Positions 1,289 through 20,101 of a DNA stretch of 64,000 bases are shown piece after piece. Both the position numbers and the translations under genes were made by a program. Within the stretch, counting starts at the first letter, position 1. Each line of letters begins with the position of its first letter. Below the pieces are notes generated by a model. It saw only the letters and a program-made list of their open reading frames with translations, did no database searches and was not told where the DNA came from. The DNA is from Nodularia sp. NIES-3585 (GTDB lineage Bacteria > Cyanobacteriota > Cyanobacteriia > Cyanobacteriales > Nostocaceae): contig NZ_BDUB01000001.1 in NCBI RefSeq assembly GCF_002218065.1, forward strand, positions 4,869,118 to 4,933,117, in the 5' to 3' direction.

Positions 1289-1581
1289 GAGTAAAAAGGT
1301 ATTTATGTATTGCCAAATGTTACGTGAGGACAATAAATTAATATCTGTTTCAGTAGCCTCTTTTAGCAAAATTTGAGCTTTCAAAGTATTTTAAGACTTA
1401 CGCAAAATCATCAAAAAATTAATTACATTCACACCGCGTATCCTCTTGGGAGAAGCACATAAATAACAGCGTGTTATTGCGTAAGTTATATCTTTGATGA
1501 AGATGCCAGAGTTAGTTTGAAGTTATATCTCCTCAGCAGAGATAAAAGTATAATTAAGCACATTCAATAATAGGATTAATC

Positions 1582-2028: not shown

Positions 2029-2035
2029 AGCTAAA

Positions 2036-2215
2036 TATAGGAATCCGATTTGATTATTGAAAAAATCTACGTATATGTAGGGTGTGTTATGGCTTTAGCC
2101 TAACGCACCGTCTTCTGGGTCTTGGTGCCGTACTCTCCTCGATTTAGCGCAGCCATGCCCCTTGGGCTATACACACCCTACGCGTGTTTCATAAATCAAA
2201 TATGAGTCCTATAGG
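2036..2215. repeat. MITE-like element, copy A
   Basis: About 180 bp with imperfect terminal inverted repeats: TATAGGAATCCGATTTGATT at the left, and at the right the reverse complement TATAGGACTCATATTTGATT. The interior carries the GTAGGGTGTGTTATGGC...GCCTAACGCACC palindromic unit. A second, inverted copy lies at about 17714-17852. There is no coding capacity. TA at both outer ends is compatible with a Tc1/mariner (IS630)-type parent transposase, which is an inference. Confidence 0.7.
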
Positions 2216-2354
2216 TGTAAATAAAGTTAACTGGTGTTCTCGTCCTTCTTCCAAGAAGAGACACTACGCGAACGCTTTAGCGATACTTTGTTTCATGATT
2301 TTGCGTAAGTCCTGTTCATAACATAGTTGGGTTTATTTTTGCTTACCTACTTAA

Positions 2355-2705
2355 TTGGAAAAATACATCTTTAAACTGTTTATGTTTATGCACAACAACT
2401 TCCGATTAAAAACCGTAAATATCCGCAATTTTATGCTAGGTTTTATGCCAAGGCTTAGAATGAATTGGTGGGTCGAAATCATCACTACAGAACCTCTTTG
2501 CACGTACTATTTTGGACCTTTTGCAAACTTTGCAGAAGCAGAATTTGCCCACTCTGGCTATATTGAAGACCTGGAATTTGAAGGGGCGCAGGGAATTAAA
2601 TTTACCATAAAACGCTGTCAGCCAAAGGTCTTAACAATATTTGATTTAGAATCCGAATCTTTTGAAGCTGAATATTCACATTTAAAGAAGACAATACCTT
2701 CATAA
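2355..2705 (+). CDS. DUF1816 domain protein
   Basis: The core NWWVEIITTEPLCTYYFGPFANFAEAE matches the small DUF1816 proteins found almost only in cyanobacteria, which I recall as ~90-100 residues of unknown function. The 116-residue frame opened by TTG at 2355 is longer than that; Met36 (ATG at 2460) sits 6 nt after CCAAGG and directly before NWWVEI, so the true start may be there or at an intermediate Met (2382-2445). A C-terminal acidic tail follows the domain. It stands alone, with no operon partner. Confidence 0.65.
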   Translation: MEKYIFKLFMFMHNNFRLKTVNIRNFMLGFMPRLRMNWWVEIITTEPLCTYYFGPFANFAEAEFAHSGYIEDLEFEGAQGIKFTIKRCQPKVLTIFDLESESFEAEYSHLKKTIPS

Positions 2706-2921
2706 GATTAACGAGATGAACAGAAGAAACTGATGTAATTCAGCATAAATCATCAGAGTTTGTCGTTACAGTTTAGCGCTAAAGGGAGAAAGCGCAAAGC
2801 TGCAAAATTTAAATAGTGATGCAAAGTGTCACTGTAAGTAACCGGGGTTTAGACTAGAAAATTTTTCTATAACTTTGCGATTGGTTGATGAGTTTTAGTT
2901 TTCAGTATTAGAGAGGAATTA

Positions 2922-3524
2922 ATGATTATGACTAATGTTGCTCAAACCGTCATAACTACAGATATGAAAACATATCTTAGTGATGCTATTGAATTAGTAT
3001 TGATTGAAAACAAAAGCGTTTTAGAAAAAATCAACTATTTCACAATTGCCCAGCTTGGGCAAACAATTATGAATTCACCAAGAATATTTGTTGCTGGTGA
3101 AGGGCGTAGTGGCTTAGTGATAAAGATGTTTGCCATGAGACTAATGCATTTAGGACATCAGGTATACGTCGTAGGTGAAACCATTACTCCGTCCATTCAA
3201 GCAGGTGATTTACTGATTAATTTTTCTGGTTCAGGGACCACAGAACACATTTGGCAAATTACCCATAAATCAAAAGAAATTGGTGCTTATGTTGCTAGTG
3301 TCACAACTCAAGCAGATTCTCCTTTAGCTAAAATAGCAGATTTTTTAGTTTTAATTGAAGCGGCTGCAAAGCAAGATCATAGTCATCAAAAATCACAACA
3401 ATTTAGTGGTTCTTTATTTGAACAAGCATCTTTGCTATTGTTTGATACTTTGTTTCATGTACTGTTTAAGGAATATGGTAAAAATGCTGAAAGTCTTTGG
3501 TCTTTACACGCTAACCTTGAGTGA
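2922..3524 (+). CDS. hxlB: 6-phospho-3-hexuloisomerase (SIS domain)
   Basis: A 200-residue SIS-fold protein, the normal length for PHI, which interconverts D-arabino-3-hexulose 6-phosphate and fructose 6-phosphate in the ribulose-monophosphate (RuMP) route of formaldehyde fixation. Diagnostic stretches are GEGRSG (59-64), AMRLMHLGHQVYVVGET (71-87) and SGSGTT (102-107), with FSGSLFEQ near the end; they match PHI more closely than GmhA or KpsF sugar isomerases. Either Met1 or Met3 could start. It lies 60 bp ahead of the synthase gene on the same strand, opposite in order to many methylotroph hps-phi pairs. The pairing makes the assignment firm; the physiological role in a cyanobacterium is open. 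Confidence 0.88.
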   Translation: MIMTNVAQTVITTDMKTYLSDAIELVLIENKSVLEKINYFTIAQLGQTIMNSPRIFVAGEGRSGLVIKMFAMRLMHLGHQVYVVGETITPSIQAGDLLINFSGSGTTEHIWQITHKSKEIGAYVASVTTQADSPLAKIADFLVLIEAAAKQDHSHQKSQQFSGSLFEQASLLLFDTLFHVLFKEYGKNAESLWSLHANLE

Positions 3525-3584
3525 ATAAATCTAGAAATTCTTGACTGTAATAAACTGAAATATTCCCACAATGATGAGGTTTTT

Positions 3585-4223
3585 ATGAAATTACAAGTTT
3601 CCGTTGATTTATTATCCTTAGAGCAAGCAATGAATTTGCTTAAAGAAGTTTATCCTTACGTGGATATTATTGAAGCAGGGACTCCTTTAATTAAGCAAGA
3701 GGGACTAAAGGTTGTCGAAGCATTCAAAAAATATTTTCCTGATAAATTGATTTTTGCAGATATGAAAACAATGGATGCTGGAGGATTAGAAGCTGAGATG
3801 GCATTCAAAGCAGGAGCAGACTTCACAACAGTCTTAGCCGTATCAAATGACAATACGATTGCAGGTGCCATAACTGCCGCGCGTAAATACGGAAAGTACG
3901 TTACTGCTGATATGATTTCTGTTCCAGATCGTGTGTCCCGTGCGCGTCAATTACAAAATCTAGGAGTTGATTACCTAGAACTACACTGTGGACTAGACGA
4001 ACAGGCTCATCATTTGTGTGCTTCTACCGTAAATGAACTCACGGCTATACGAAATGCCATTTCAATTTCTCTTTCGGCAGCAGGAGGTATCAATGAAAAA
4101 ACGATTCAGGAAGTAGAAGCCGCAGGAGCTAATGTAGCAGCAGTTGGTGCTGCCATTTATAGTGCTAAGTCTCCGGCTGAAGCCGCCCGTCGTTTACAGG
4201 AAAAAATCAACTCAAAAGCATAA
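3585..4223 (+). CDS. hxlA: 3-hexulose-6-phosphate synthase
   Basis: A 212-residue OMP-decarboxylase-superfamily barrel. It condenses formaldehyde with ribulose 5-phosphate (or runs in reverse). Asp8, Glu30, ADMKTMDAG (58-66; Asp59, Lys61, Asp64), HCGLDEQA and SAAGGI are the phosphate- and metal-site segments. The DxKTMDAG form is what I remember for HPS, whereas 3-keto-L-gulonate 6-phosphate decarboxylases have DxKIADAG, so HPS is preferred. Start ATG 3585 follows GATGAGGT. It probably forms an operon with hxlB upstream and the epimerase-like gene 37 bp downstream. A side role as a sugar-acid phosphate decarboxylase cannot be excluded. Confidence 0.87.
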   Translation: MKLQVSVDLLSLEQAMNLLKEVYPYVDIIEAGTPLIKQEGLKVVEAFKKYFPDKLIFADMKTMDAGGLEAEMAFKAGADFTTVLAVSNDNTIAGAITAARKYGKYVTADMISVPDRVSRARQLQNLGVDYLELHCGLDEQAHHLCASTVNELTAIRNAISISLSAAGGINEKTIQEVEAAGANVAAVGAAIYSAKSPAEAARRLQEKINSKA

Positions 4224-4260
4224 CAATTTGAGAACAGCATATGTCTTGAATCCCTACTAA

Positions 4261-5337
4261 ATGTCACTTATGTACACGCACGGAAGAAAAGAAGGTTGTC
4301 GCATTAGTTTAGACTACACTTACAAAAGTATGCAGATTGCATACTTGGAGAACGAGTTACTGCGGGTGGGAATATTACTAGAAAAAGGTGCAGATATCTT
4401 TGAATTCACCTACAAGCCTCACAACTTGGACTTCATGTGGCAATCACCAATTCAGATGCGTCCCCCTTTTGTTGCTACTAGTGCGTTACCCGAGGGAGCT
4501 TTCCATGATAATTACTATGGTGGTTGGCAGGAGATACTACCATCAGCAGGATGGTCAGTAGAACCCTATCTGGGGACTTTTCAAGGACTGCATGGTGAAT
4601 TAGCACTCCTCCCTTTTGAGGCTAGCATTTCTGAAGACACACAAGACCAAGTGACTTTATACACACGTGTACGTCTTTACCGTTCACCGTTAATGCTGGA
4701 GCGTAAGATGTCTCTCAAACGCGGTATTGCGGCTTTGTTTATTCACGAACGTCTTGTGAATGAATCAATGGGTGAATTCGCTATCATGTGGGGTCATCAT
4801 CCTGCTATTGGAGAACCATTCTTGGATGACAGTTGTATAGTTCAAACCCCAGCTGCCAAAGTTGAGGTGATGGCTTACCATCAAAATGGTTTGTGGGAAC
4901 CAGGAGAAGATTACAATTTTCCTAATGTCAAAAATCGGCGCACCGGGGTTATACAAGACGTTACTTCTATACTCCCTAGGGAAACCGAATCAGTTGATAT
5001 CGTCTTTTTCAAAGAATTAACAGAAGGTTGGTACGGTTTAACCAATCAAAGAAAGGGTGTAGGCTTTGGAATGGTTTGGGATAAAGAACTGTTTAAATAT
5101 CTTTGGATGTGGCAGGTTTACGGTGGACACACTGATTATCCTTGGTATGGACGGACATATAATTGCGCTCTTGAGCCATTCACGAGTTTTCCTCCTTCTG
5201 GGATCAAAAATGCTATTAAAAACGGTACGGCATTGACAATGAAGGCAGGTGAAATCATTGAAACGGAATTAGTTGCTGTTGCTTACGAAGGAGAAAGCGT
5301 AAAACGTATTACTCGGGATGGAGTTGTGGAGCAATAG
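4261..5337 (+). CDS. aldose 1-epimerase-like protein (galactose-mutarotase fold)
   Basis: A 358-residue protein with mutarotase-superfamily features: FMWQSP, GLHGELALLPFE, a WGHHPAIGEPF segment holding the likely catalytic histidines, and NCALEPFTSFP supplying the glutamate. It resembles the DUF4432-type branch rather than classical GalM. It would interconvert sugar anomers or bind a sugar; the substrate is unknown. The first Met is 37 bp after hxlA and a later Met (residue 23, MQIAYLENELLRVGI) could be the real start because the conserved part begins there. Its place after hxlBA suggests the cluster handles a sugar and not only formaldehyde. Confidence 0.72.
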   Translation: MSLMYTHGRKEGCRISLDYTYKSMQIAYLENELLRVGILLEKGADIFEFTYKPHNLDFMWQSPIQMRPPFVATSALPEGAFHDNYYGGWQEILPSAGWSVEPYLGTFQGLHGELALLPFEASISEDTQDQVTLYTRVRLYRSPLMLERKMSLKRGIAALFIHERLVNESMGEFAIMWGHHPAIGEPFLDDSCIVQTPAAKVEVMAYHQNGLWEPGEDYNFPNVKNRRTGVIQDVTSILPRETESVDIVFFKELTEGWYGLTNQRKGVGFGMVWDKELFKYLWMWQVYGGHTDYPWYGRTYNCALEPFTSFPPSGIKNAIKNGTALTMKAGEIIETELVAVAYEGESVKRITRDGVVEQ

Positions 5338-5581
5338 TCAGTAGGTGGAAAACTTTTGAAATGTGATGAAATATAAGAGTTTCAGATCCTGAGTGTCTAA
5401 TGAGTTCAAAAACAGCCCCTACCTCGGATTTCTCACAACACAAGTTCGACTACGCCCCCTCGACCGAACTCAATGTGGGCTTAAGTTACTTGTTAACTCA
5501 ACGATTTTCGCTGGCTAAAACTGGTGATAACTAGAAAACTAAATAACGAAAACGCAACTTATTCATCAAGGGATCTAAACT

Positions 5582-6352
5582 ATGCGACTCAAAGATAAAG
5601 TTGCTATTATCACTGGTGCTTCTAAGGGCATTGGTTTGGGAATTGCTACAGTTTTGTCTAGAGAAGGAGTTAAAATTGCTGTTGTTGCTCGGAATCCTCA
5701 AGATGGTGAGCAGGCTGCTGAAGATATTCGTAATAAAGGTGGCCAAGCCACATTTATTCCTTGCGATGTCTCTAATGAAGAGCAAGTCAAAACAATGGTA
5801 CAAACAACCCTAGACATATATGGTCAAATTGATATTCTAGTCAACAATGCTGGCGTTGGCATCTATAAAACCGTACTGGAAACTACCAGTGAGGAATGGG
5901 ATCGTTGCTTGGCAATTGACCTCAAAGGTGTATTTCTCTGTTCTAAGTACACCATCCCTCATATGCAGGCTCTAGGAAAAGGGGCAATCATTAATATATC
6001 TTCGGTACACTCCCATGCCACGGTTAACGGTGTTGCTCCTTATGTCGCCTCAAAAGGTGGGATAACTGCTTTAACACGCAACATGGCTATTGATTATGGG
6101 CCGGCTATTCGAGTCAATACAATTTCCCCTGGTTGGGTGCTGACACCTCTAATACAAAGTATCTTCGATGGTTACGATGACCCAGATCAGCAACAGCGTT
6201 TGGTCGAAGAACGGCAAGTGATGAAACGTATTGGTACTCCAGAGGATATTGGCTATGCTGTCGCTTTTTTCGCTAGCGATGAGGCTTCTTTTATTACTGG
6301 TACAGAACTCTTTGTCGATGGTGGTTTGACTGCTCAACTGGAAACCTGGTAG
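5582..6352 (+). CDS. SDR family oxidoreductase
   Basis: A 256-residue classical short-chain dehydrogenase. It has the cofactor motif TGASKGIG (11-18), NNAG (88-91), the catalytic Ser around 140-141, Tyr154 and Lys158 in YVASK, and the ISPGWVLTP loop after it. Members of this group are NAD(P)-dependent sugar or polyol dehydrogenases or ketoacyl reductases. Its position after an aldose epimerase favours a sugar or polyol substrate, an inference only. A 244-bp gap from the epimerase gene allows a second promoter; the next gene follows after 38 bp. Confidence 0.85.
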   Translation: MRLKDKVAIITGASKGIGLGIATVLSREGVKIAVVARNPQDGEQAAEDIRNKGGQATFIPCDVSNEEQVKTMVQTTLDIYGQIDILVNNAGVGIYKTVLETTSEEWDRCLAIDLKGVFLCSKYTIPHMQALGKGAIINISSVHSHATVNGVAPYVASKGGITALTRNMAIDYGPAIRVNTISPGWVLTPLIQSIFDGYDDPDQQQRLVEERQVMKRIGTPEDIGYAVAFFASDEASFITGTELFVDGGLTAQLETW

Positions 6353-6390
6353 GTCAAATTTGTATTAATGATTACAATCAAGGATTTACT

Positions 6391-6786
6391 ATGGTGACAC
6401 TCAACGATGCCCGCCGGATTATTGCTCATGCCGAAGAAAAAGCGATCGCCATCGGTCAACCAATGAATATTGCAGTGGTAGATGCTGGCGGAAACTTGGT
6501 TGCTCACGTGCGTATGGATGGGGCTTGGCTAGGAAGTATTGACATTTCTATCAAGAAGGCTTACACCTCCAGATCCTTTGACTTGGCTACTAAGGATTTG
6601 GCGACACATTGCCAATCTGGTGGGCAATTCTTCGGTATCCATGCATCTAATGATGGCAAAATCATGATTTTTGCCGGTGGTATTCCTCTCAAGAGCAATG
6701 GCATGGTGGTGGGAGCTATTGGCGTTAGTGGTGGTTCGGGAGAACAAGACCACACAGTAGCAGAAGTAGGGGCAGCGGCTTTCTAA
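6391..6786 (+). CDS. GlcG/HbpS family heme-degradation-like protein
   Basis: A 131-residue protein of the GlcG/HbpS (DUF336) family: TLNDARRIIAHAEEKA, NIAVVDAGGNLVAHVRMDGA, the KKAYTSRSF helix and a GAIGVSGGSGEQD end. Homologues bind heme or iron (HbpS) or sit in glycolate and diol operons with no proven reaction. It is part of the + strand cluster, 38 bp after the SDR and 56 bp before the azoreductase gene. A co-operonic accessory role in redox or aldehyde metabolism is inferred. Confidence 0.85.
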   Translation: MVTLNDARRIIAHAEEKAIAIGQPMNIAVVDAGGNLVAHVRMDGAWLGSIDISIKKAYTSRSFDLATKDLATHCQSGGQFFGIHASNDGKIMIFAGGIPLKSNGMVVGAIGVSGGSGEQDHTVAEVGAAAF

Positions 6787-6842
6787 ATAGCAGTTTTCGA
6801 CTTTGTTTTTGTCTAAATTACACAAAATTTGGAGTATGATTC

Positions 6843-7466
6843 ATGACTAATATTTTGCATATCGATACCAGTCCACGTGATGCACGTTCAATTTCTCGCC
6901 AACTAACCAAGGAATTGATCACAAATTGGCAAGGCACTTATTCTCAAGACACGGTGACATATCGAGATTTAGGACATCAATTAATAGCTCCGGTTGATGA
7001 GCCTTGGATTGCGGCTACTTTTAGTTCACCAGAGTCACACACACCAGAATTGGCAGCGGCTATAAAGATTTCGGATGAGTTAATTGATGAGTTTTTAGCT
7101 GCGGAACGCTATGTTTTCGGTGTTCCTATGTATAATTTCAGTGTGCCATCTAATTTTAAGGCATACATTGATCAAATTGTTCGCGTGAAACGCACATTTG
7201 TCGTCAATGAACAGGGTGGATATGAAGGTTTAGTTACTAATAAGAAAATGCTTGTGATTACTGCTAGAGGCGGTAGCTATACACAAGGGACTCCCGCTGC
7301 ACAATTTGACTTTCAAGAACCTTATATCCGGGCAATTTTTGGCTTAATTGGTGTCACGGATATCACTTTTATTCATGCAGATAACTTGGCAATGGGTGAT
7401 GATGCTCGCACTCAGTCTCTGGAAAATGCCCGGCAAGCAATGAAAGATATTGTCAGTAATTGGTAA
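6843..7466 (+). CDS. azoR: FMN-dependent NADH-azoreductase
   Basis: A 207-residue flavodoxin-fold quinone/azo reductase. It has ILHIDTSPR near the start, VFGVPMYNFSVPSNFKAYIDQIVR in the middle and VITARGGSY for the FMN phosphate and ring contacts, all in the expected order. The enzyme reduces quinones and azo compounds by two electrons with NADH and often responds to electrophile stress. ATG 6843 is preceded by GGAG at 6832-6835, a proper ribosome site. It lies in the middle of the + strand cluster; electrophile or aldehyde stress would be a coherent theme with hxlBA, which is an inference. Confidence 0.87.
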   Translation: MTNILHIDTSPRDARSISRQLTKELITNWQGTYSQDTVTYRDLGHQLIAPVDEPWIAATFSSPESHTPELAAAIKISDELIDEFLAAERYVFGVPMYNFSVPSNFKAYIDQIVRVKRTFVVNEQGGYEGLVTNKKMLVITARGGSYTQGTPAAQFDFQEPYIRAIFGLIGVTDITFIHADNLAMGDDARTQSLENARQAMKDIVSNW

Positions 7467-8772: not shown

Positions 8773-10326
8773 ATGTATTTCACTATTGTCTTACTTAGCT
8801 CTTTTTTAGCGAGTATCCTCAGTTTTATTACTGTCAATATTCCATCTGTAGCCGAAACTATAGAAAATGACTCAACAGCACAACTCACCTCTGTATCTCA
8901 ACTAGAAGATGTACAGCCTACAGATTGGGCTTTTCAATCGCTGCAATCTTTAGTTGAGCGATATGGTTGTATTGCCGGGTATCCAGATCAAGTATACCGA
9001 GGCAATCGAGCCTTGAACAGATATGAGTTTGCCGCAGGTTTAAATGCTTGTTTGCTCCGAATCAACGAACTGATGGCGACGACTACTTCTAGCTTGATCA
9101 ACACCAATGATTTAGAGACTATTCAGCGTCTGCAAGATGAATTTACTACAGAACTAACATTGTTGCGGAGTCGTTTAGATACCTTAGAAGCTCAAACCGC
9201 AGAAATAGAAGCAAATCAATTCTCCACCACCACTAAGTTAACAGGTCAAGTGATCATGGCGGTGAATGCTGGAGGATTTAATGGAGAACGCATTATCAGC
9301 TCCACAGGTCAAGAAATTGCTAGTTTTGATCCCAGTGCTACAGTGCTTTATCGAGTTGCTTTAGACTTGAATACCAGCTTTTCTGGCACAGACTTATTAA
9401 AAATTCGCATTGATACAGGCAGTAACAATGGTATTAACAATGCAGCCGGATTCCTAGAACCATCCTTTGGTAGTACCTTAGACTATGCGGTGAAACCACC
9501 TAGAGATAATAACTTGGGGTTGGGGAGAGTGTACTATACTTTTCAACCACTGCAAAACTTGAGTGTGTCTGTAGGGCCAGACATTCGCACTACAGATTAT
9601 ATTGACCGCAATAGCTACGCTTATTTAAGCTTTCGAGACTTTAGCACCTTGGCTTTTGTGAACAACTACATTCTCTTTCCAGTTAGTGGCCCTAGTGCTG
9701 GGGCGGCAATTGACTGGAAACCAGGAGCGGGAACATTTTCGGTACGGGCTTTGTACGCTGCCGCCGGAGCTGCTAATTCTAGCAATCAAGGGCCTATAAT
9801 GGGGGTTGCGCCGTTTACTCGCCTGCTGTATCCCGTTAGTGGCGGTAAACAAGGCTTATTTGGTGACACCTATCAAAGTGCGCTGGAACTCGAATATGCA
9901 CCCTCAAACATTTTTGCACTGCGTCTTCAGTACAGTGGCGGCGAAATTTATAGTCATCACTATGACGTATTCGGAGCAAATGTTGAGCTAACTGTTTCGC
10001 CACGATTTGCTGTATTTGGTCGTTATGGTTACGGTAACTATCAGGACACCACTGTTGACAATATTAAGCCTAACTACTGGATGGCAGGAATGGTGTTTCG
10101 AGACTTGTTTCGCCAAGGTGCTATGGCTGGAGTTGCCGCAGGCCAACCCTTTATTGCTAACGAAATTGGTGATAGCACTCAAACTAATTTTGAAAGTTTT
10201 TATAGTTTTCCGGTGAGCGATCGCATTCGAGTTACTCCTGTAATTCAGGTAATTGTTAATCCTGGTAATCAGGATACAAATGGGACAATTGTTACAGGGA
10301 GTTTACGTACTGTTTTTTCTTTCTAG
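8773..10326 (+). CDS. SLH-domain outer-membrane porin (iron-uptake porin type)
   Basis: A 517-residue porin: signal peptide (residues ~1-28), one SLH domain (LEDVQPTDWAFQSLQSLVERYG..YPD, to ~95) that binds the peptidoglycan layer, a short coiled coil (LETIQRLQDEFTTELTLLRSRLDTLEAQ split over ~115-150), then an OprB-like beta barrel ending in Phe. Cyanobacterial porins of this design carry inorganic ions and iron and are often annotated as iron-uptake porins. It ends the + strand cluster; the stop overlaps the convergent EamA gene by four bases. Confidence 0.88.
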   Translation: MYFTIVLLSSFLASILSFITVNIPSVAETIENDSTAQLTSVSQLEDVQPTDWAFQSLQSLVERYGCIAGYPDQVYRGNRALNRYEFAAGLNACLLRINELMATTTSSLINTNDLETIQRLQDEFTTELTLLRSRLDTLEAQTAEIEANQFSTTTKLTGQVIMAVNAGGFNGERIISSTGQEIASFDPSATVLYRVALDLNTSFSGTDLLKIRIDTGSNNGINNAAGFLEPSFGSTLDYAVKPPRDNNLGLGRVYYTFQPLQNLSVSVGPDIRTTDYIDRNSYAYLSFRDFSTLAFVNNYILFPVSGPSAGAAIDWKPGAGTFSVRALYAAAGAANSSNQGPIMGVAPFTRLLYPVSGGKQGLFGDTYQSALELEYAPSNIFALRLQYSGGEIYSHHYDVFGANVELTVSPRFAVFGRYGYGNYQDTTVDNIKPNYWMAGMVFRDLFRQGAMAGVAAGQPFIANEIGDSTQTNFESFYSFPVSDRIRVTPVIQVIVNPGNQDTNGTIVTGSLRTVFSF

Positions 10327-11210
10327 AGGTTATGCTTGGTACTAGATTGACGTAGTTGACTAGTTCGTTGTCCGATAAAAACACTCATCAAAACAATAGC
10401 AATCCCAATCAGTTGAATGGGCGTAAATGCTTGATCTAGTAAAAGGAATCCAATTATTGTTGCGACTACAGGACTGATCAAACCTAGATATGAAACAGCC
10501 GATGCTTTGAGTTGATCAATCCCCCGGAACCAAAGGGCATAAGCAACTCCAGTGCCAACCAAACCCAGGTAAACGAAAGCTAATAGATTCGTTGTTGAGA
10601 CATAAGTTATCGGCCCCTCAATCACCAAAGCGATTGGTAACAAGACAATTCCGCCAACTACTAATTGCCATGCTGTAAACACAAGTAAAGAAACTGGGCG
10701 TTTCCAGAGTTTGACTAATACCGTTCCTAAACCCATGACTGCGGCTCCAGCGATCGCGGCAAAAATCCCAACACTATCAAGACGCGCACTCGGGCCTAGA
10801 ACCAGCACCCCGACACCTACAAAGCCAGCGATCGCTGCCACAATAGATAATTTAGACGGTTTTTCCTGCAAAATTAACCAAGAAAACAATACAACTAATA
10901 AAGGCTGGATTGCCCCCGCTGTTGCCGCAACGCCACCTGGAAGGCGATAAGCAGCTATAAATAATAGCCCTTGGAAGATGCCAATATTGAGACTACCTAA
11001 GAGCAAAATCCGCCACCACCAAATACCTTGAGGCAGTTGTCTTAACCATGCTGTTAACAGAATACCAATGGGTAGCGAACGTAAGGAAGCCACCAATAGC
11101 GGATGGTTAGGCGGTAAGAATTCAGTGGCGACAACATAAGTCGTTCCCCAAGTCATCGGCGCTAAAGCAGTCAGCAGAACATCGGACAAACGAACATTAG
11201 CTGTCTTCAT
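10323..11210 (-). CDS. EamA family (DMT) transporter
   Basis: A 295-residue protein with ten hydrophobic segments arranged as two EamA repeats: the first holds TTYVVATEFLPPNHPLL and RLPGGVAATAGAIQPLLV, the second VFTAWQLVVGG and LGLISPVVATIIGFLLLDQAF. Such carriers usually export amino acids or metabolites. It runs against the porin gene and shares its last bases. ATG 11210 is followed by a 1.1-kb gene-free stretch, so it has its own promoter. Confidence 0.87.
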   Translation of the reverse strand: MKTANVRLSDVLLTALAPMTWGTTYVVATEFLPPNHPLLVASLRSLPIGILLTAWLRQLPQGIWWWRILLLGSLNIGIFQGLLFIAAYRLPGGVAATAGAIQPLLVVLFSWLILQEKPSKLSIVAAIAGFVGVGVLVLGPSARLDSVGIFAAIAGAAVMGLGTVLVKLWKRPVSLLVFTAWQLVVGGIVLLPIALVIEGPITYVSTTNLLAFVYLGLVGTGVAYALWFRGIDQLKASAVSYLGLISPVVATIIGFLLLDQAFTPIQLIGIAIVLMSVFIGQRTSQLRQSSTKHNL

Positions 11211-12328
11211 GGTGTTTATTTTATATCAAGATAATAGGCGATTTCATGGTGTTTATCAACCTCAGTATATATTAGTTTTATTGTTCTAAATTAATTAGCG
11301 ATCGCTTAAAATGTAGATAGCTGACATTATCAACTTTTTGCTCACACAAGTGTATATTTCTTGTAAAAAAGATATTTCAACTTCCAATAAATTAAATGAA
11401 TCAATGAAGTCAAGAAAACTTTTGCAATTAGCTTAAGTAAGTTGGCAAGAATAAAGCCAACTATCTGAAGTCATGTAAAAATATTGTAATTTAGCTCGTA
11501 GTGAGGGCTTTAGCCCTTAATTCAGGACTAAAGTCCTGACTACAAACCTTTAATTATTTACGATAACTTAGTTAACCTCTTAAGATCCTTTTCAGACTAT
11601 TTGTTAGTTAATTTTTGCTGGGCGAGATAACATTGCTATTTTATATAACTATAAACTAGTATAAAATAACAACAAAATTTTGTCTAATAAAAATCGCCAA
11701 CTTAAGAATCAACTTAAGAGGTTTTCCAAATTTAGCCATGAATAACTAGAGTTTCTTAAAAGCCAATACGGTTCATTTAAAGACAAAACCAACCCAAAAT
11801 CACAGCGTTTTTCAGTTAAATGAACCACATCTTTAGGGATTTCCAGAAAATAAATTGCCCCATTTCATCAGACCATATCCTGAAATGCCTTGATTAATCC
11901 ATCTTTATCTGTGTTAATCTGCGTCCATCTGCGTTCAATTATGCTTGATATTTTATTCCATGCAGCTTCATATTAATTTAGTATTAGGCGCAAAGGAAGA
12001 AAGAAATACAGATATCAGCGCGTGGTCTAAATACAGAAATGTTGTCAGAAAAAAGCTTCGTGTAGCTTCCGCGTAGAGCATACCGCATTTCCTTAGCGTC
12101 TCCCCTTGGAAGAAGGACGCAAAGAACACGAATGAATAAGAGTTTCTATGTAGCTACTTAGTTTCTTAAGTTGAGCTTTAACCTCATGTTTTTCACTGGT
12201 GAAAACCTGCCAAGCTTGAAAAACTGAAAGCAGAAAAGTGTTCCATTATTCATCACCTCTACACCCAAAAATAGAATTTACCTCTACTCAACTGCAAACA
12301 AACTGGTTATAAAAATTAGAGAGTAATT
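11211..12328. other. 1.1-kb gene-free region between EamA and the NRPS gene
   Basis: No convincing coding frame on either strand. It holds a palindromic unit near 11498-11552 (AGGGCTTTAGCCCT and AGGACTAAAGTCCT halves), the left 30-bp inverted repeat of the NRPS unit (11801-11831), stray pieces of dispersed repeats near 11895-11940 and 12030-12125, and the NRPS leader. GAGAG at 12320-12324 is the likely ribosome site for the NRPS. An AT-rich tract at 11640-11670 could hold a promoter, not assignable. Confidence 0.5.
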
Positions 12329-15300
12329 ATGCAAACCGAAGATGTGAATATTCAAAACATTGCTTATCTAGATTCAGAAGATTTGATAGCAAAATCTCTT
12401 CTTGACTTGTTGTTAGAGCAAGTGCAGATTCAACCCAACGAAGAAGCAGTTATCTGTGATCATTGTGATCATGAATGTATAACTTACAAAGAACTTGCCG
12501 AAATCAGTTCGCGCTTGGGGTCGTATCTGCAAAATCTTGGGACATCTGTCGATGAATGTGTAGGTATTTTCCTTGAACCGTCTCTGGAGTTAGTCGTTGG
12601 GATTTGGGGCATTTTATTCTCAGGTAGCGCCTACTTGCCATTATCACCAGAATATCCCGAAGACCGACTGAGATATATGGTTGAGGATGCAGGTGTCAAA
12701 ATTATTTTTTCACAAGAAAAGCTACGCCCAATCTTAGCCGAACTTGTACCCCCTGATACGCAAATTGTTACCCTGGAAGAAGCTGAGGCCTTTGAGATTC
12801 CATCCAGCATAACTAAACAGGATCAACTCTCTAAACAACCGCGTCCAGACAACTTAGCTTATGTAATTTATACATCTGGAAGTACGGGAAAACCAAAAGG
12901 GGTGATGATTGAACACCGCAGTATCATCAACCAGATGAAGTGGATGCGCGCTGTTTGCAAATTGGATCAAAGCAAAGTTGTTTTGCAAAAAACACCCATG
13001 AGTTTTGATGCAGCACAATGGGAAATTCTAGCATCCTGTTGTGGCACTAAAGTGATTATGAGCCGTCCTGGAACCTATAAAGATCCAGAACAATTAATTG
13101 AGACAATTATCAAACATCATGTAACGACTCTGCAATGCGTTCCCACGCTGTTACAAGCTCTGATTGATACCGACATATTCCACAATTGTCAATCACTCAT
13201 ACAGATATTCAGTGGCGGCGAAATTCTGTCAAAAAAACTGGCGCTACAATTCATCGAAGTACTGCCAGAATGCGACTTAATTAATATCTATGGACCAAGC
13301 GAATGCACTATCAATGCTTCCGCTTTTAAGGTTGATAAAAATAAGATTGCTCATTTGTCTGAGGCAATCCCTATTGGCACTCCTGTTTACAACACTCAGT
13401 TTTACATTATCAACAGTCATAAAAAGCTAGCACGAGTGGGAGAAACCGGTGAGCTATACATTGGTGGTGTTCAGCTGGCGCGTGGATACATTAATCGACC
13501 AGACTTGAGTCAAGAAAGGTTTGTCAAAGACTGGTTTTCGATGATATCTGGAGATGCCAAACTTTACAAAACTGGTGACTTAGTTTATCGGAATGTAGAT
13601 GGTACTGTTCAGTTCGTAGGCCGGATAGACAATCAGGTGAAACTTAGAGGGTTTCGGATTGAGCTTGACGAAGTAAAGGTGGCTATTGAAAAGCATGATT
13701 GGGTTAAAAATGCAGCTGTTATAGTTAAGAAAAATTCCCGTACCGGATACTCTGATTTGATTGCATGTATTGAATTGAGTCCTAAACAAGCTGCTGTGAT
13801 GGATCAAGGTGTTCAAGGTGAACACCATTTGTCTAAGCAAAATAAGCTTCAAGTCAAAGCTCAATTGTCGAATCTTGGATATAGGGGTATCGACGAAGAA
13901 GATTGTGTGCCTAGCCAGATAGTGATTGATCTTCCAGGTAAAACACCGACTGAAGAACAGCGGCAATTAGCGTTTCATCGGAAATCCTACCGTTTATTTG
14001 AGGGTGGTGCCGTTCACAAAGCTGATATTATCCAGCTACTGGATGGACAAGTTACTAGCGCCAAGACCGACAATTTGACCGATGATCGTAGCTTGGATAA
14101 GTTGAGCTTCACAGAATTAGGTCACATTTTGAGGTATTTCGCACCGTTTCACAGCGATGAGCGTCTATTACCCAAGTACGGTTACGCATCACCGGGTGCA
14201 TTGTATGCAACGCAAATGTATCTCGAATTAGTCAACATAGCTGGTTTGCAGTCTGGTTACTACTATTATCATCCGGGACACCATCAATTAGTACTATTAA
14301 ATCAAATAAATAGTACAGAAAAAACACGCATAAAAATACACTTCATTGGCAAGAAAAAAGCTATCGAGCTAGTTTATAAGAATAATATTCAAGAAGTACT
14401 CGAAATTGAAACTGGCCACATATTGGGTCTGTTTGACAAGATTCTTCCAGCATATAAACTGAGCATTGGCGATGCTGAATATACGCCTGATGTCCAAGAT
14501 GACCTGGTATGTTCAGACGAGTACTATTATTATTTGGGTTCTTTTGGTTTGGTGTCTCAGGTCAGTACATTATCCAAGGAAGTGGTTGATATCTATGTGC
14601 AGAGTCATCCTGGAAAAATCGCTGACTTACCGGCAGGTCTGTACAAATACAAAGACGGTGGCTTGGAAAAAATCTCAGACGATATCATTCTCAAGGGGCA
14701 TGTAATAGCTATCAATCAGCTAACCTACGAACAAGGAAGTTTTGGCATCACCATGATTGGTAGAAGCGTTTGTAAATGGGCGAATTATTTCGCCCTCGGC
14801 AGGAAGCTGCAACATTTACAGATGAACGATCTCAATTTGGGTCTATTGTCCTCTGGATACAGCTCTGAAACTAGTAATGATCTGCCTTCGGCAAAGCGGA
14901 TAACAAGGATACTCAGCGCCAGTCATGAAGAACCAGGCCCTTCTTATTTCTGTATTGGTGGTCGGGTGAGTCATGAGCAGTTAATTAGCGAGGGAATGAA
15001 GGAAGATGCCGTCCAGATGAAAGGCCCCGCAGAGTTAATCAAAGAGGATATACACAATTTCTTGCCTGATTATATGATCCCTAACAAGATCATAGTCATG
15101 GACAAGTTACCGCTGACTGTCAATGGAAAAATCGATGTAAAAGCACTAGAAGCATCGGAAAAAGTGAATACCGAAATGGTTGCCCGGCCTATGATTGTAC
15201 CTCGGACAAATACTGAACAGCGCATCAGCGAAATTTGGAAGAAGGCTATGAAGTGGGATTCTGTCTCGATATGTGACGATTTCTTTGAATCCGGCGGCAA

Positions 15301-16237
15301 TTCACTGATTGCTGTGAGAATAATCAACAGTATTAATAAAGAGTTTCATCGTACCTTGCCTTTACATGCTCTTTTTGAAGCTCCAAGCATTGAGAAGCTG
15401 GCTCAGAAGATTGATAGTGATAAAGTTGAATTTTCCTCGCGTTTAGTACGCCTGTCCTCCACGGGAGTAAATCATCCCGTCTATTGCTGGCCTGGACTTG
15501 GCGGCTACCCAATGAATTTGAGGTTGCTAGCAGACAAAGCAAATATCAATCGACCCTTTTACGGTATCCAGGCCTATGGAATCAACCAAGGAGAAAAGCC
15601 GTTTCCTTCGGTGAGTGAGATGGCTAAAGAAGACATTAAGGAAATCAAGCGGATTCAACCAACTGGTCCCTATACGCTCTGGGGATATTCCTTCGGCGCA
15701 CGGGTGGCCTTTGAAGCTGCTTATCAGCTGGAACAGTCGGGTGAGCAAGTGGAAAATCTCTTTTTAATCGCTCCGGGTTCACCAAAGGTTCGCACTGAGA
15801 ACAACGTTATTGATAGCAATCAACCTGTATTTACCAACAAAGCCTATGTGACAATTCTGTTCTCGGTTTTTGCCAGTACTATCACTGGCCCTGCACTGGA
15901 GGAGTGTCTGAAGGTTGCACAGGATGAAGACAGCTTCGCATCATTCATTTCAAGATACAAGAAGCTTGATTTGGATCTGGTGGAACGAATCATGAAAATT
16001 GTACAGCAGACATACGAAGCCAAGTACACATTCCGCGAACTAGCAAAGAGACAAATCATTGCGCCCATAACTATTTTTAAGGCGGCTGGTGATGATTATT
16101 CATTCATTGAAAATAGCGGTGGATACTTTAAAAAGACTCCGACGATTATCAATCTCCGAGTTGATCATTATAGTATGCTCAAGATTACAGGCATTAGCAA
16201 ATTGGTAAGCGCCATTGATCAACTGTCCCAACTTTAA
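12329..16237 (+). CDS. indigoidine-synthetase-like NRPS (A-Ox-PCP-TE)
   Basis: One module of 1302 residues. The adenylation domain has YTSGSTGKPKG (181-191), GDLVYR (416-421) and LRGFRIELDE (439-448). It is then interrupted by a ~350-residue SagB/nitroreductase-like FMN oxidase domain (RKSYR 551-555, PGALY 622-626, LSSGYSS 840-846) and resumes to Lys934. A carrier domain follows (Ser992 in GGNS), then a thioesterase (GYSFG, Ser1121; His1280). Oxidase inserted within A, with a terminal TE, is the plan of BpsA/IndC (about 1280 residues), which turn two L-glutamines into the blue pigment indigoidine. Specificity residues read D227 A228 W231 Q269 F294 G296 I320 I328 N329 K934, close to the glutamine code DAWQFGLIDK as I remember it. 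No indA or indB homologue or phosphopantetheinyl transferase lies near. The product is therefore inferred. Confidence 0.85.
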   Translation: MQTEDVNIQNIAYLDSEDLIAKSLLDLLLEQVQIQPNEEAVICDHCDHECITYKELAEISSRLGSYLQNLGTSVDECVGIFLEPSLELVVGIWGILFSGSAYLPLSPEYPEDRLRYMVEDAGVKIIFSQEKLRPILAELVPPDTQIVTLEEAEAFEIPSSITKQDQLSKQPRPDNLAYVIYTSGSTGKPKGVMIEHRSIINQMKWMRAVCKLDQSKVVLQKTPMSFDAAQWEILASCCGTKVIMSRPGTYKDPEQLIETIIKHHVTTLQCVPTLLQALIDTDIFHNCQSLIQIFSGGEILSKKLALQFIEVLPECDLINIYGPSECTINASAFKVDKNKIAHLSEAIPIGTPVYNTQFYIINSHKKLARVGETGELYIGGVQLARGYINRPDLSQERFVKDWFSMISGDAKLYKTGDLVYRNVDGTVQFVGRIDNQVKLRGFRIELDEVKVAIEKHDWVKNAAVIVKKNSRTGYSDLIACIELSPKQAAVMDQGVQGEHHLSKQNKLQVKAQLSNLGYRGIDEEDCVPSQIVIDLPGKTPTEEQRQLAFHRKSYRLFEGGAVHKADIIQLLDGQVTSAKTDNLTDDRSLDKLSFTELGHILRYFAPFHSDERLLPKYGYASPGALYATQMYLELVNIAGLQSGYYYYHPGHHQLVLLNQINSTEKTRIKIHFIGKKKAIELVYKNNIQEVLEIETGHILGLFDKILPAYKLSIGDAEYTPDVQDDLVCSDEYYYYLGSFGLVSQVSTLSKEVVDIYVQSHPGKIADLPAGLYKYKDGGLEKISDDIILKGHVIAINQLTYEQGSFGITMIGRSVCKWANYFALGRKLQHLQMNDLNLGLLSSGYSSETSNDLPSAKRITRILSASHEEPGPSYFCIGGRVSHEQLISEGMKEDAVQMKGPAELIKEDIHNFLPDYMIPNKIIVMDKLPLTVNGKIDVKALEASEKVNTEMVARPMIVPRTNTEQRISEIWKKAMKWDSVSICDDFFESGGNSLIAVRIINSINKEFHRTLPLHALFEAPSIEKLAQKIDSDKVEFSSRLVRLSSTGVNHPVYCWPGLGGYPMNLRLLADKANINRPFYGIQAYGINQGEKPFPSVSEMAKEDIKEIKRIQPTGPYTLWGYSFGARVAFEAAYQLEQSGEQVENLFLIAPGSPKVRTENNVIDSNQPVFTNKAYVTILFSVFASTITGPALEECLKVAQDEDSFASFISRYKKLDLDLVERIMKIVQQTYEAKYTFRELAKRQIIAPITIFKAAGDDYSFIENSGGYFKKTPTIINLRVDHYSMLKITGISKLVSAIDQLSQL

Positions 16238-16350: not shown

Positions 16351-16535
16351 GACTTTTTCATTAGTCCAGGTCGCTAGATTTCCGTAGGGTAAGTCGCTAC
16401 GCGTCATGCTGTGTGTAGTAGCGTACAGACTGCGACACGCTGATACGTGAGATATAAAGATGTGGTTCATTTAGCTGAAAATCGCTGTAAATGAATAACC
16501 ACAGCTTATTACCATTGAAAACAAGAGGTTTAAGG

Positions 16536-16988
16536 ATGAATGAACGCACGATTTATCTGTTTGCGGCACTCGCTGGAGGGGCGATTCTACCTGTTCAAAT
16601 CGCCCTGAATACGCTGTTGCGACGTTATGTGGGTGAGCCAATGCAAGTTACCTTTGTTTCATACCTTGCAGGGACATTAACATCGCTTGCTATCTGTTCT
16701 TTTGCGCGGTATCCAATTCCGGCTGCAACTGCGCTTTTTCAAACATCTTGGTGGATGTGGGTTGGTGGTTGTTTGGGTACTTTGTATGTTTGGGCAACTA
16801 TTTTTTCCACACCTAAGATAGGAGCCGCACTTGCACTTTCGCTGACGATTTCAGGTCAAATGATAGCAGCACTTTTTCTGGATCATTATGGTGCTATTGG
16901 GCTGACTAAATATCCAGCTAGTCCGTTACGTATAATCGGAATAGTCTTCGTGATTATTGGGGTTTCTTTGGTTGCGGCTAAAAAATGA
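16536..16988 (+). CDS. YdcZ-type (DUF606) small DMT transporter
   Basis: About 150 residues with five hydrophobic segments: ERTIYLFAALAGGAILPVQIALNTLLRR, then YLAGTLTSLAI, SWWMWVGGCLGTLYVW, ALALSLTISGQMIAAL and a last TM ending VAAKK. This is the half-size DMT type that works as a dimer. The frame is open from 16491, but ATG 16536 is better: AAGAGG lies 8 bases before it and homologues begin with the first TM. It is the only gene close downstream of the NRPS, so a role in moving its product is conceivable but unsupported. Confidence 0.8.
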   Translation: MNERTIYLFAALAGGAILPVQIALNTLLRRYVGEPMQVTFVSYLAGTLTSLAICSFARYPIPAATALFQTSWWMWVGGCLGTLYVWATIFSTPKIGAALALSLTISGQMIAALFLDHYGAIGLTKYPASPLRIIGIVFVIIGVSLVAAKK

Positions 16989-17929: not shown

Positions 17930-19384
17930 TTACACCTTAGTTAAAAGCCCAAGTGCTTTGGCAACTCCTTCTCCATAAACTGGATCTGCCTTGGTAAAGT
18001 GTGCTAGTTGCCGTTCAATAATAAACTGTGGTACACCCTGCATCGCTGCTGAAATATTTTGAAAAAGTCGTTGCTTTTCGTCTGCTGATAGTAACCTAAA
18101 AAGCTCGCCAGCTTGCTTGTAATCTTCATTACCAGCACGGTGATCGTAACGGTCAGCATTACCAGAAATCTTCAATGGAGGTTCTTGGAAACGTGGATCT
18201 GCAACTGGGCCTCCAAAGCTGTTTGGCTCATAGTTGACCGATCCTCCGCCGTTGTCATTGAAACGCATCATACCGTCACGATGATAGTTATGTGTCCTAG
18301 AAGCATGTGGGCAATTGATCGGCAAGCTTTCGTAGTTTACTCCCAATCTGTAACGGTGTGCATCTGGGTAAGACAAAATACGGGCTTGCAGCATTTTGTC
18401 TGGGCTGAATGAAATTCCCGGTACAACATTAGAGGGAGAAAATGCAGCCTGTTCAATTTCTGCAAAGTAGTTTTCTGGATTGTGGTTAAGTTGAAGAATA
18501 CCAACCTCAATTAATGGGTAATCTTTGTGTGGCCAGACTTTAGTTAAATCGAAAGGATTATAAGATGTTTTATCTGCATCGGCTTCTGGCATAATTTGCA
18601 CGTGTAATCGCCACTGTGGATATTCACCCTGCTCAATGGCATAAAATAAGTCACGTTGTGCGCTTTCACGATCCTCTCCCATAATCTTTGCAGCTTTGTC
18701 ATTGGTTAGGTACTGGTGTCCTTGCATGGTTTTAAAGTGGAACTTGACCCAGAACCGTTGATTTTCTGCGTTAATAAAACTGAATGTATGGCTACCGTAA
18801 CCATTCATGTGACGATAACTTTTGGGTAAGCCGCGATCGCTAAATAAAATTGTCAGTTGATGTAAACTCTCTGGTGATAGTGACCAGAAATCCCACATAC
18901 TTGTGGCATTGCGGAGATTCGTTTTGGGATCACGTTTTTGGGTATGAATAAAATCGCTAAACTTCATGGGATCGCGCACAAAGAAGACTGGGGTGTTATT
19001 TCCTACCATATCCCAGTTGCCTTGTTCAGTATAAAACTTAACTGCAAAGCCGCGGACATCTCGCTCGGCATCTGCCGCACCCCGTTCACCTGCAACCGTA
19101 GAAAATCTGGCGATTACCTTCGTTTGTTTGCCAATTTCTGCAAAAAGTTTCGCCTGTGTATAGGCTGTGATATCATTAGTCACAGTAAATGTGCCATAAG
19201 CACCCGATCCTTTGGCGTGAACTGATCTTTCTGGAATACGTTCCCGGTTAAAATGCGCCATCTTCTCAATTAGATGAAAATCTTGCATCAACACTGGTCC
19301 GTGTGCGCCTGCGGTTAATGAGTTTTCGTTATCACCCACGGGAATGCCAGCATCTGTAGTCAGAATTTCTTTTTCGTTATTCAT
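17930..19384 (-). CDS. katA: monofunctional heme catalase
   Basis: A 484-residue small-subunit heme catalase that dismutates hydrogen peroxide. It has the distal His56 in [12 protein letters not shown], the conserved [11 protein letters not shown] (Asn129/130), the long heme-pocket segment and the proximal tyrosine region [14 protein letters not shown] near residue 338. It is full length with no disruption. It is transcribed 57 bp after the isochorismatase-fold hydrolase gene, so an operon is likely. Cyanobacteria mostly rely on KatG or Mn-catalases as far as I recall, so this clade may have been acquired. Confidence 0.93.
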
Positions 19385-19441
19385 GATTTTCTCGGAATTT
19401 TTATGGGATTTGAATCTATGGAGATAGGGGTAAAAACTTAA

Positions 19442-20101
19442 CTATGCCTGTTTAGCCAGATAGTTCATATGAGCAGTAACAAACCCAAAATTAGGCATTC
19501 GCTGGGCATAGAGCTTTCCTAAAGCCGGGGCGAATGCACTGGACCAATCTGATAAAATTTCCGCAATTACCATATTGGTATTAGCAATTTTCACTCCTGC
19601 CTGACTCATGCGAAACATAGTTGCATACAAAGCTTGTTGATTGACTGTGCCAGAAGCATCCATTACGGCATAAACGTCGTAGCCATTTTCAACTGCACTG
19701 ATAGCCGGGAATGTTAAACACACATCTGCTGTTACCCCTGCCATGATCAGTTTTTGGCGACCAGTTTGTTGAACTGCCTGAACAAAGTTAGGATCATGCC
19801 AAGCGTTAATGCGGACTCGATCAATCACGGGTATATCTGGAAAGATTTCTAGGAGTTCTGGAAACAAAGGACCGTTTGCACCTTTGGGATTACTTGTAGT
19901 GAGAATAACTGGTAAATTAAAGATTTTTGCTGCTTCTGCTAGCCACAATGTTTGGTTTTTCAAATGTAATGCATCAATATCAGCAAGACCGAAGTTCATC
20001 GTTCCCACTTGGTGATCGATTAGCAGCATAGCTGCATTGTCTGGGGTGAGTAACTCGTAATACGAATTGTGTTGAGAATTGTGGTTGGAGATAGTTTCCA
20101 T
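19442..20101 (-). CDS. isochorismatase-fold (YcaC-like) hydrolase
   Basis: A 219-residue cysteine hydrolase. Asp29 lies in AMLLIDHQVG, the nucleophile Cys128 in AGVTADVCLTFPA, and the characteristic RVRINAW segment between them. Family members hydrolyse amide or vinyl-ether bonds; YcaC itself has no settled substrate. A C-terminal extension (FGFVTAHMNYLAKQA) follows the domain. It is the first gene of the pair with the catalase, which suggests stress-linked expression. Confidence 0.82.
   Translation of the reverse strand: METISNHNSQHNSYYELLTPDNAAMLLIDHQVGTMNFGLADIDALHLKNQTLWLAEAAKIFNLPVILTTSNPKGANGPLFPELLEIFPDIPVIDRVRINAWHDPNFVQAVQQTGRQKLIMAGVTADVCLTFPAISAVENGYDVYAVMDASGTVNQQALYATMFRMSQAGVKIANTNMVIAEILSDWSSAFAPALGKLYAQRMPNFGFVTAHMNYLAKQA

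What the first reader, a model, noticed from the sequence alone, without database searches (positions are those of the whole stretch)
12329..16237. Indigoidine-synthetase-like NRPS in a cyanobacterium
One gene has an adenylation domain interrupted by a flavin oxidase, then a carrier and a thioesterase, the plan of BpsA/IndC. The specificity residues read by hand (D A W Q F G I I N K) differ in two of ten places from the glutamine code I remember, D A W Q F G L I D K. All catalytic residues seem present. A blue glutamine-derived pigment, or an oxidised diketopiperazine relative, would be unusual for an oxygenic phototroph.
Basis: partly seen in the sequence, partly recalled or inferred. Interest (0 to 1): 0.87.

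Follow-up and report, generated by a model that had tools for sequence, protein, structure and literature searches.

The report
Cyanobacterial blue-pigment (indigoidine) synthetase locus
A cyanobacterium carries a complete gene for making indigoidine, a blue antioxidant pigment built from two glutamines, placed between two likely export-pump genes whose usual repressor has been lost; rare relatives in other cyanobacteria suggest the gene has moved between species.

Summary
Observation confirmed. ORF 12329-16237 (1302 aa) is a full-length A-Ox-A-T-TE synthetase, 57.6% identical end to end to the BpsA/IdgS-type enzyme of Streptomyces lavendulae. Glutamine pocket, FMN arginine, Ox tyrosine, carrier and TE serines are conserved.

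It is rare in cyanobacteria (9 genomes found; 7 of 217 in the family sample) and probably spread horizontally: synonymous divergence is below that of rpoB in 35 of 36 pairs. G403 keeps a fuller cluster beside recombinase genes.

New in the neighbourhood: a YdcZ-type DMT gene is the direct neighbour in 7 of 9 genomes. In synthetase-less relatives its orthologue is divergent from a PecS-like gene (6 of 12 loci) across two palindromes, also found at 5 of 5 PecS-PecM-like loci. In synthetase genomes pecS is missing or a fragment and the palindromes decayed. The window gene lies between this YdcZ and an orphan PecM-like exporter with a palindrome relic. Dickeya PecM is reported to export indigoidine, so I read both as indigoidine exporters freed from PecS.

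The parts
12329..16237 (+). Indigoidine synthetase, A-Ox-A-T-TE, 1302 aa; pocket residues 227, 228, 231, 269, 294, 296, 320, 328, 329, 934; Ox Arg551, Tyr683; carrier Ser992; TE Ser1121, His1280
   Evidence: 57.6% identity to the S. lavendulae enzyme
13736..15043 (+). Ox (FMN oxidase) insertion, residues 470-905, between A8 and A9/A10
   Evidence: Profile match to BmdC and CyaGox; 17-member alignment
16491..16988 (+). YdcZ-type DMT membrane protein (PF04657), proposed exporter; the true start is probably the MNERTIYL methionine, 15 codons into this ORF
   Evidence: Pfam; direct neighbour of the synthetase in 7 of 9 genomes; orthologue divergent from a pecS-like gene in 6 of 12 synthetase-less loci
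10323..11210 (-). PecM-like EamA/DMT exporter, divergent from the synthetase, no PecS partner
   Evidence: 75.7% to the PecM-like protein of Nostoc PecS-PecM-like pairs; 49.7% to the EamA of the S. lavendulae cluster; at E 1e-40 in 6 of 217 family genomes
11216..11233 (-). Relic of the PecS-type palindrome, 5 nt before the PecM-like start codon
   Evidence: 3 mismatches, not significant by number alone, but aligned with the Nostoc palindrome at the same place

Best explanation
The gene encodes an indigoidine synthetase. After phosphopantetheinylation of Ser992 by the host PPTase, the A domain activates L-glutamine and loads it on the carrier; the TE (Ser1121) releases and cyclises it to 3-aminopiperidine-2,6-dione; the FMN Ox domain dehydrogenates this (Arg551 holds FMN, Tyr683 is the likely base); two molecules couple in air to blue indigoidine. 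The order cyclise-then-oxidise is taken from IdgS (PMC10989907, which leaves oxidation on the carrier open as a second route). The pigment, or its reduced form, is exported by the YdcZ protein next door, and in this strain probably also by the divergent PecM-like EamA. Both exporter genes derive from PecS-type divergent pairs; in this lineage the pecS gene is gone and its palindromes have decayed, so export is no longer under PecS. The synthetase entered cyanobacteria once, as far as the sampled sequences show, from a fuller cluster (tautomerase, IndA, HAD phosphatase, upp, DMT) still seen in G403, and then moved between genera. Shown: homology, conserved residues, linkage, relic DNA, low synonymous divergence. 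Inferred: activity, product, export role, loss of PecS control, direction of transfer.
For: Full-length 57.6% identity to the S. lavendulae protein, whose Arg539, Ser603 and Ser1102 fall at the published IdgS numbers (PMC10989907). Pocket identical to it in 9 of 10 positions. Residues matching its Arg539 and Tyr665 conserved in 16 of 17 members, carrier and TE serines in 17 of 17. dN/dS 0.15-0.20 overall. A PPTase-family gene in the genome. Cyanobacterial group supported 100/100. G403 carries IndA (PF04227), a tautomerase fusion, HAD, upp and two YdcZ with the synthetase. YdcZ is the direct neighbour in 7 of 9 genomes; PecS-like gene divergent from the YdcZ orthologue in 6 of 12 synthetase-less loci, pecS fragments between synthetase and ydcZ in L001, L002, L035; palindromes; no close PecS in any of the 9 synthetase genomes. 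Two papers state that PecM exports indigoidine in Dickeya (PMC12288460, PMC6391409, passages read).
Against: No experiment on any of these nine proteins is known to me. IndA, upp, HAD and tautomerase, common in other indigoidine clusters, were not found in the window, and IndA is missing from 8 of 9 genomes; BpsA is known not to need them (recalled). YdcZ of G403 is only 27% identical to the window's and not directly beside the synthetase. The Xenococcaceae locus has no YdcZ in the 14 kb held. In 6 of 12 synthetase-less loci YdcZ has no PecS. PecM is near the synthetase only in the window, and no other of the 7 synthetase genomes of the family sample has it at 1e-40. NCBIfam gives the PecS-like and PecM-like proteins no name above cut-off. 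The title of the primary Dickeya work says 'possible involvement' in efflux, and an A. fabrum PecM has another substrate (PMC12288460). Two stray palindrome matches with 2 mismatches lie away from such genes (L079:10529, L035:4870). The Pelatocladus copy lacks about 72 residues of the A domain (assembly error or decay).
Confidence: 0.88

Rival explanations
1. The enzyme makes another glutamine-derived compound: the uncoupled 3-aminopiperidine-2,6-dione, or a C-nucleoside of the minimycin kind, with indigoidine at most a by-product.
For: Minimycin and indigoidine have divergent biosynthesis from a shared start (title of a reference seen; details recalled, the paper was not held). The Ox step could be limiting in vivo.
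Against: Minimycin-type chemistry needs an IndA/PUG-like enzyme (recalled), which is absent from the window genome and 7 other synthetase genomes. Ox residues are intact and under much the same constraint as the rest.
Confidence: 0.08
2. The gene is silent or inactive in this strain: a transferred gene kept without use.
For: Patchy distribution (7 of 217), a relative with an A-domain deletion (L006), no tailoring genes found, and no close PecS.
Against: dN/dS 0.13-0.23 in A, Ox and T-TE alike across seven relatives; upstream DNA shared with L035, L002 and L001 well above shuffles, though not with L003, L004, L006 or L044.
Confidence: 0.1
3. YdcZ and the PecM-like EamA sit beside the synthetase by chance and export something else.
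For: Both families are found without the synthetase; an A. fabrum PecM serves another substrate (PMC12288460). PecM is linked in 1 of 9 genomes only. Close YdcZ relatives also lie on plasmids of other cyanobacteria (surroundings not examined).
Against: YdcZ is the direct neighbour in 7 of 9 genomes, upstream in L005 and downstream in the other six; the synthetase-linked YdcZ lie on one branch, 7 of its 8 rows, 96/92; PecS control is tied to indigoidine in Dickeya (PMC6391409), and MarR genes lie by the synthetase clusters of Vibrio and Corynebacterium.
Confidence: 0.3

Closest known systems
BpsA/IdgS of Streptomyces lavendulae (relative on plasmid pSA3239, WP_030237949.1)
   Same: Domain order, insertion point, pocket apart from one V/I change, Ox and TE catalytic residues, length
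   Different: 57.6% identity; its neighbourhood has upp, EamA, tautomerase, IndA-type glycosidase, ribose-phosphate diphosphokinase and a SARP regulator; of those searched for only an EamA is near the window gene
Synthetases of Leisingera plasmids (IgiD-type, name recalled) and of Vibrio sagamiensis
   Same: Same architecture and pocket DAWQFGLINK
   Different: 47% identity; other neighbours (tautomerase, MFS, arylmalonate decarboxylase in Leisingera; PecS-like MarR, EamA, upp, IndA, HAD in Vibrio)
PecS-PecM of Dickeya, Vibrio and relatives
   Same: DMT exporter that in relatives of this strain is divergent from a MarR repressor with 18-bp palindromes between; PecM is said to export indigoidine in Dickeya (PMC6391409, PMC12288460)
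   Different: In the window both exporters are without PecS; one of them is the half-size YdcZ type instead of EamA
BmdC oxidase of bacillamide synthesis; CyaGox
   Same: FMN oxidases matched by the insert
   Different: Separate proteins acting on thiazolines (BmdC: PMC8795117; CyaGox recalled); here embedded in the A domain

Membership tests
Indigoidine synthetase (BpsA/IndC/IdgS) | Single module A-Ox-A-T-TE with Ox between A8 and A9 | tested here: met
Indigoidine synthetase (BpsA/IndC/IdgS) | Glutamine pocket as in family members | tested here: met
   DAWQFGIINK against DAWQFGVINK in S. lavendulae; among 17 members it varies at the V/L/I position and, in 2, at the Phe; positions placed by motif from recalled GrsA numbering
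Indigoidine synthetase (BpsA/IndC/IdgS) | FMN-binding Arg (IdgS Arg539) and active-site base Tyr (Tyr665, number recalled) | tested here: met
   Arg551 and Tyr683
Indigoidine synthetase (BpsA/IndC/IdgS) | TE serine (IdgS Ser1102) and carrier serine | tested here: met
   Ser1121, Ser992, 17 of 17
Indigoidine synthetase (BpsA/IndC/IdgS) | Makes indigoidine from glutamine, ATP and O2 | not testable with these tools
   Needs expression with a PPTase
Indigoidine gene cluster with IndA-type partner | IndA (PF04227) next to the synthetase | tested here: not met
   Absent from the window genome; present in 1 of 9 cyanobacterial synthetase genomes, G403
PecS-PecM regulated exporter pair | PecM-like DMT exporter divergent from PecS with palindromic sites between | tested here: not met
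   PecM-like gene present, but no PecS in the genome at E 1e-5 and the palindrome decayed

The most novel reading that the evidence does not exclude
Cyanobacteria hold a distinct indigoidine locus in which the synthetase has taken the place of the repressor in a PecS-YdcZ pair: YdcZ, a half-size DMT protein, is a second family of indigoidine exporter next to PecM, and loss of PecS and of its two-palindrome operator made a stress-switched export function serve a constitutive or newly regulated pigment in an oxygen-producing cell.
Probability: 0.35. Interest if true: 0.68.

Novelty: new member of a known kind. Interest (0 to 1): 0.52.

Why it matters
It puts a one-gene, colour-scored antioxidant pathway in oxygenic phototrophs, where reactive oxygen is a daily problem, and gives named strains (Amazonocrinis nigriterrae CENA67, Westiellopsis prolifica IICB1, Nostoc sp. 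WHI) to test. The neighbourhood ties a little-known membrane-protein family (YdcZ) to a regulator family known for controlling indigoidine, and supplies a candidate operator sequence.

Tried and rejected
Rejected: 'odd pocket' as a sign of another substrate (the Asn is in 17 of 17). Rejected: diketopiperazine product (no second module). Not counted as kin: the other 11 of 13 genomes with a hit in the phylum sample (best E 1.8e-14 to 8.9e-4); their matches are short and most lie in frames over 1400 aa, so I take them for BmdC-like Ox domains of larger synthetases, which I did not test. Left as a lead: the SIS and HPS-like genes at 2922-4223. Looked for and not found: NtcA-type GTAN8TAC sites upstream of the window gene and of seven of the other eight (one site in G403, 609 nt upstream); remnants of IndA, upp, HAD or tautomerase in the window or of pecS by the window gene. 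My label of Tyr601 as the active-site base in the script was a wrong recall; one search shows the YKNN tyrosine to be Tyr665 in the S. lavendulae numbering. The tree cannot order the non-cyanobacterial lineages: long branches, 4 open forks; its outgroups are 7 plasmid loci of the 37 records that cover at least 80% of the query, plus Vibrio. In one search, L001 and L035, of one genus, share no upstream DNA above shuffles, and the window shares none with L003, L004, L006 or L044.
Full report
The observation. The window has one long ORF at 12329-16237 on the + strand, 1302 aa. Pfam gives an AMP-binding domain, a carrier and a thioesterase. Between motif A8 and the end of the A domain lies an insert that Pfam does not recognise with the limit at E 10. 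phmmer finds the FMN oxidase BmdC (E 2.2e-6); a profile of 17 homologous inserts finds BmdC at 2.2e-12, a putative nitroreductase at 5.1e-7 and CyaGox at 3.2e-4. PMC8795117 (passages read) states that the Ox of indigoidine synthetase lies between A8 and A9 and is a fused pair resembling a BmdC dimer.

Identity. tblastn against plasmid records gives 37 records where one place covers at least 80% of the query; the best are Streptomyces, mostly 48-57%, then Leisingera, rhizobia and others at 36-47%. The S. lavendulae CCM 3239 protein on pSA3239 carries Arg539, Ser603 and Ser1102 at exactly the numbers published for IdgS (PMC10989907, first two of five parts read), so it is the IdgS/BpsA enzyme or a near copy. 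Against it the window protein is 57.6% identical: 55.7% in the A part, 56.7% in Ox, 48.6% in the carrier, 63.0% in TE.

Residues. The ten pocket positions, placed by motif from recalled GrsA numbering, read DAWQFGIINK. Across 17 members the Asn is invariant, the seventh position is I, V or L, and the Phe is replaced in two. Arg551 matches IdgS Arg539, whose Ala mutant is colourless and makes no indigoidine (PMC10989907); Tyr683 matches Tyr665 (the number of the proposed base is recalled); Ser621 matches Ser603; Ser1121 matches Ser1102; Ser992 is the carrier serine. Streptomyces microflavus (L033) is the one member lacking the Arg and the Tyr.

Is it used? Nei-Gojobori dN/dS against seven cyanobacterial relatives is 0.15-0.20 overall and 0.13-0.23 in A, Ox and T-TE taken apart. 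A PPTase-family gene (PF01648, 73.6 bits, cut-off 25) is in the genome.

Distribution. Sampled genomes with a strong Ox match (E <= 1e-20): 2 of 386 in the phylum sample (which has 11 further genomes with weak hits that I do not count), 7 of 217 in the family sample, 4 of 388 in the order sample; the samples overlap. A scan of named genomes gave 9 loci: 6 cyanobacteria, Vibrio sagamiensis and two matching the A domain only. In all: the window and eight other cyanobacterial genomes.

Horizontal spread. In a tree of 17 full proteins the nine cyanobacterial ones form one group, 100/100. The nearest other rows are two Streptomyces, but that join is only 90/91. Synonymous differences per site (pS) are lower for the synthetase than for rpoB in 35 of 36 genome pairs; for example window against Xenococcaceae 0.37 and 0.76, G380 against Nostoc WHI 0.16 and 0.48; within one genus G380 against Amazonocrinis is nearly equal, 0.20 and 0.21. 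The exception is Pelatocladus against Westiellopsis, also one genus, 0.32 and 0.22. Upstream DNA is shared between Nostoc WHI and Symploca, which are of different families (local score 63, shuffled maximum 17), and between the window and G380, WHI and Amazonocrinis (75, 56, 39; shuffled maxima 15, 15, 14), but not between the window and L003, L004, L006 or L044. In G403 the cluster lies beside a resolvase, a phage-type integrase and a DUF3987 gene; Xenococcaceae has integrase pieces nearby. That this is transfer, and in which direction, is inference.

A fuller cluster in G403. On L044 (minus strand) the synthetase carries a C-terminal tautomerase domain and is followed by IndA (PF04227), a HAD phosphatase, two YdcZ proteins, a questin-oxidase-like protein and upp. 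Vibrio has IndA, HAD, upp, EamA and a tautomerase; S. lavendulae and Corynebacterium have upp, EamA, tautomerase and IndA; S. clavuligerus has the fused tautomerase and a questin-oxidase-like protein. Xenococcaceae L003 keeps the first 20 codons of upp (90% identical) running into an EamA reading frame. IndA is found in no other of the nine genomes.

The exporters. A YdcZ gene is the direct neighbour of the synthetase in 7 of 9 loci: downstream in the window, L001, L002, L004, L006 and L035, upstream in L005. G403 has two YdcZ in its cluster, not adjacent and only 27% identical where comparable; L003 has none in the 14 kb held. In the family sample 59 of 217 genomes have a YdcZ hit at 1e-5; by my count of the rows 26 have a close one (E <= 1e-50), six of them synthetase genomes. 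I fetched 12 of the 20 others. None shows a synthetase in the stretch held. Six of the 12 have a full-length PecS-like MarR gene divergent from ydcZ about 100 bp away, 76-81% identical to that of Nostoc PecS-PecM-like pairs; the other six show none at E 1. The Nostoc protein is 45% identical to the MarR gene beside the Vibrio synthetase and has a tryptophan in an N-terminal extension, which PMC6391409 names as a PecS mark; NCBIfam gives it no name above cut-off. In the synthetase loci L001, L035 and L002 only 26, 31 and 39 residues of the PecS C-terminal part remain, between synthetase and ydcZ, on the expected strand. In the other six synthetase loci none was found at E 1. None of the nine genomes has a close PecS; the best is a weak hit in G495 (8.4e-6), against 1.4e-83 and 1.2e-101 in two comparison genomes.

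The palindrome. The six PecS-YdcZ intergenic stretches share an 18-bp palindrome, TATCTTRAYWTCAARATA, in two copies 41 bp apart. The motif was read from these six; it was then found in 5 of 5 PecS-PecM-like intergenic stretches, two copies, 41 bp apart in four and 26 in one. With up to 2 mismatches, 50 letter shuffles of L059 (16 kb) gave none; among the 26 sources searched two such matches lie elsewhere, L079:10529 and L035:4870. The six YdcZ loci without PecS have none near ydcZ. In synthetase loci a copy before ydcZ remains with 1 mismatch in L001 and 3 in L035 and L002; none before ydcZ in the window, L004, L005, L006. Before the window PecM-like gene there is a copy with 3 mismatches at 11216-11233. 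Three such matches in 64 kb are near chance (mean 1.49, 19 of 100 shuffles reach three), but this one aligns with the Nostoc palindrome next to the start codon (5 nt before it here, 6 in L078), one base short.

The PecM-like gene. Window 10323-11210 is 75.7% identical to the Nostoc PecM-like protein and found at 1e-40 in 6 of 217 family genomes; the other five have it beside the PecS-like gene and no synthetase. It is 49.7% identical to the EamA of the S. lavendulae cluster, but similar values are reached by many EamA proteins on plasmids, one of them under a tet(A) annotation, so that similarity alone is weak. Two papers state that Dickeya PecM exports indigoidine (PMC12288460, PMC6391409, passages read); the title of the primary work says 'possible involvement'.

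Literature. Nine searches: indigoidine with cyanobacteri: 73 papers, 25 listed; with Nostoc: 14, 13 listed; with genus terms; the 15 listed of 241 hold no indigoidine, so this one says little; 1 paper; PecS with YdcZ: 0. I opened passages of two papers. The only mention of indigoidine genes in a cyanobacterium that I saw is the sentence in PMC12587747; the cluster table shown lists no indigoidine cluster. Only open-licence papers are held, so reports elsewhere are possible.

Judgement. The synthetase is an ordinary, intact member of a known family in an uncommon host. The new part is the neighbourhood: two orphaned PecS-type exporters around it and, in relatives, the remains of the lost repressor.

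Noticed in passing
window 2922-4223: SIS and HPS-like (OMPdecase) genes, a ribulose-monophosphate-type pair. The HPS-like gene is in 7 of 217 family genomes at 1e-40, five of which are among the 7 with the synthetase (hypergeometric 1.1e-7, not corrected for relatedness); just upstream of the synthetase in L004 and L006, on other contigs than the synthetase in G495 and G387.
   Followed up: partly
window 61-7466: SnoaL, glyoxalase, SIS, HPS, DUF4432, SDR and HbpS-like genes; a similar block, not next to the synthetase, occurs in G495 and G387 (L096, L097).
   Followed up: partly
L033:3833-7696: Streptomyces microflavus homologue lacks the FMN Arg, the Ox Tyr and the Ser603 equivalent and lies near two aroA genes and asnB; it may make something other than indigoidine.
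   Followed up: no
L006:6567-10259: Pelatocladus synthetase lacks about 72 residues of the N-terminal A domain.
   Followed up: no
L030 and L031: Synthetases of S. clavuligerus and Rhizobium rhizogenes K84 end in a fused tautomerase domain like that of G403; in Vibrio, Leisingera, Corynebacterium and S. lavendulae the tautomerase is a separate gene nearby.
   Followed up: partly
window 17930-20101: Catalase and YcaC-like hydrolase genes downstream of YdcZ; no counterpart grouped with them at the other synthetase loci.
   Followed up: no
G000:C1:4963809-5018122: Run of further NRPS A and carrier matches starting about 30 kb beyond the window end.
   Followed up: no
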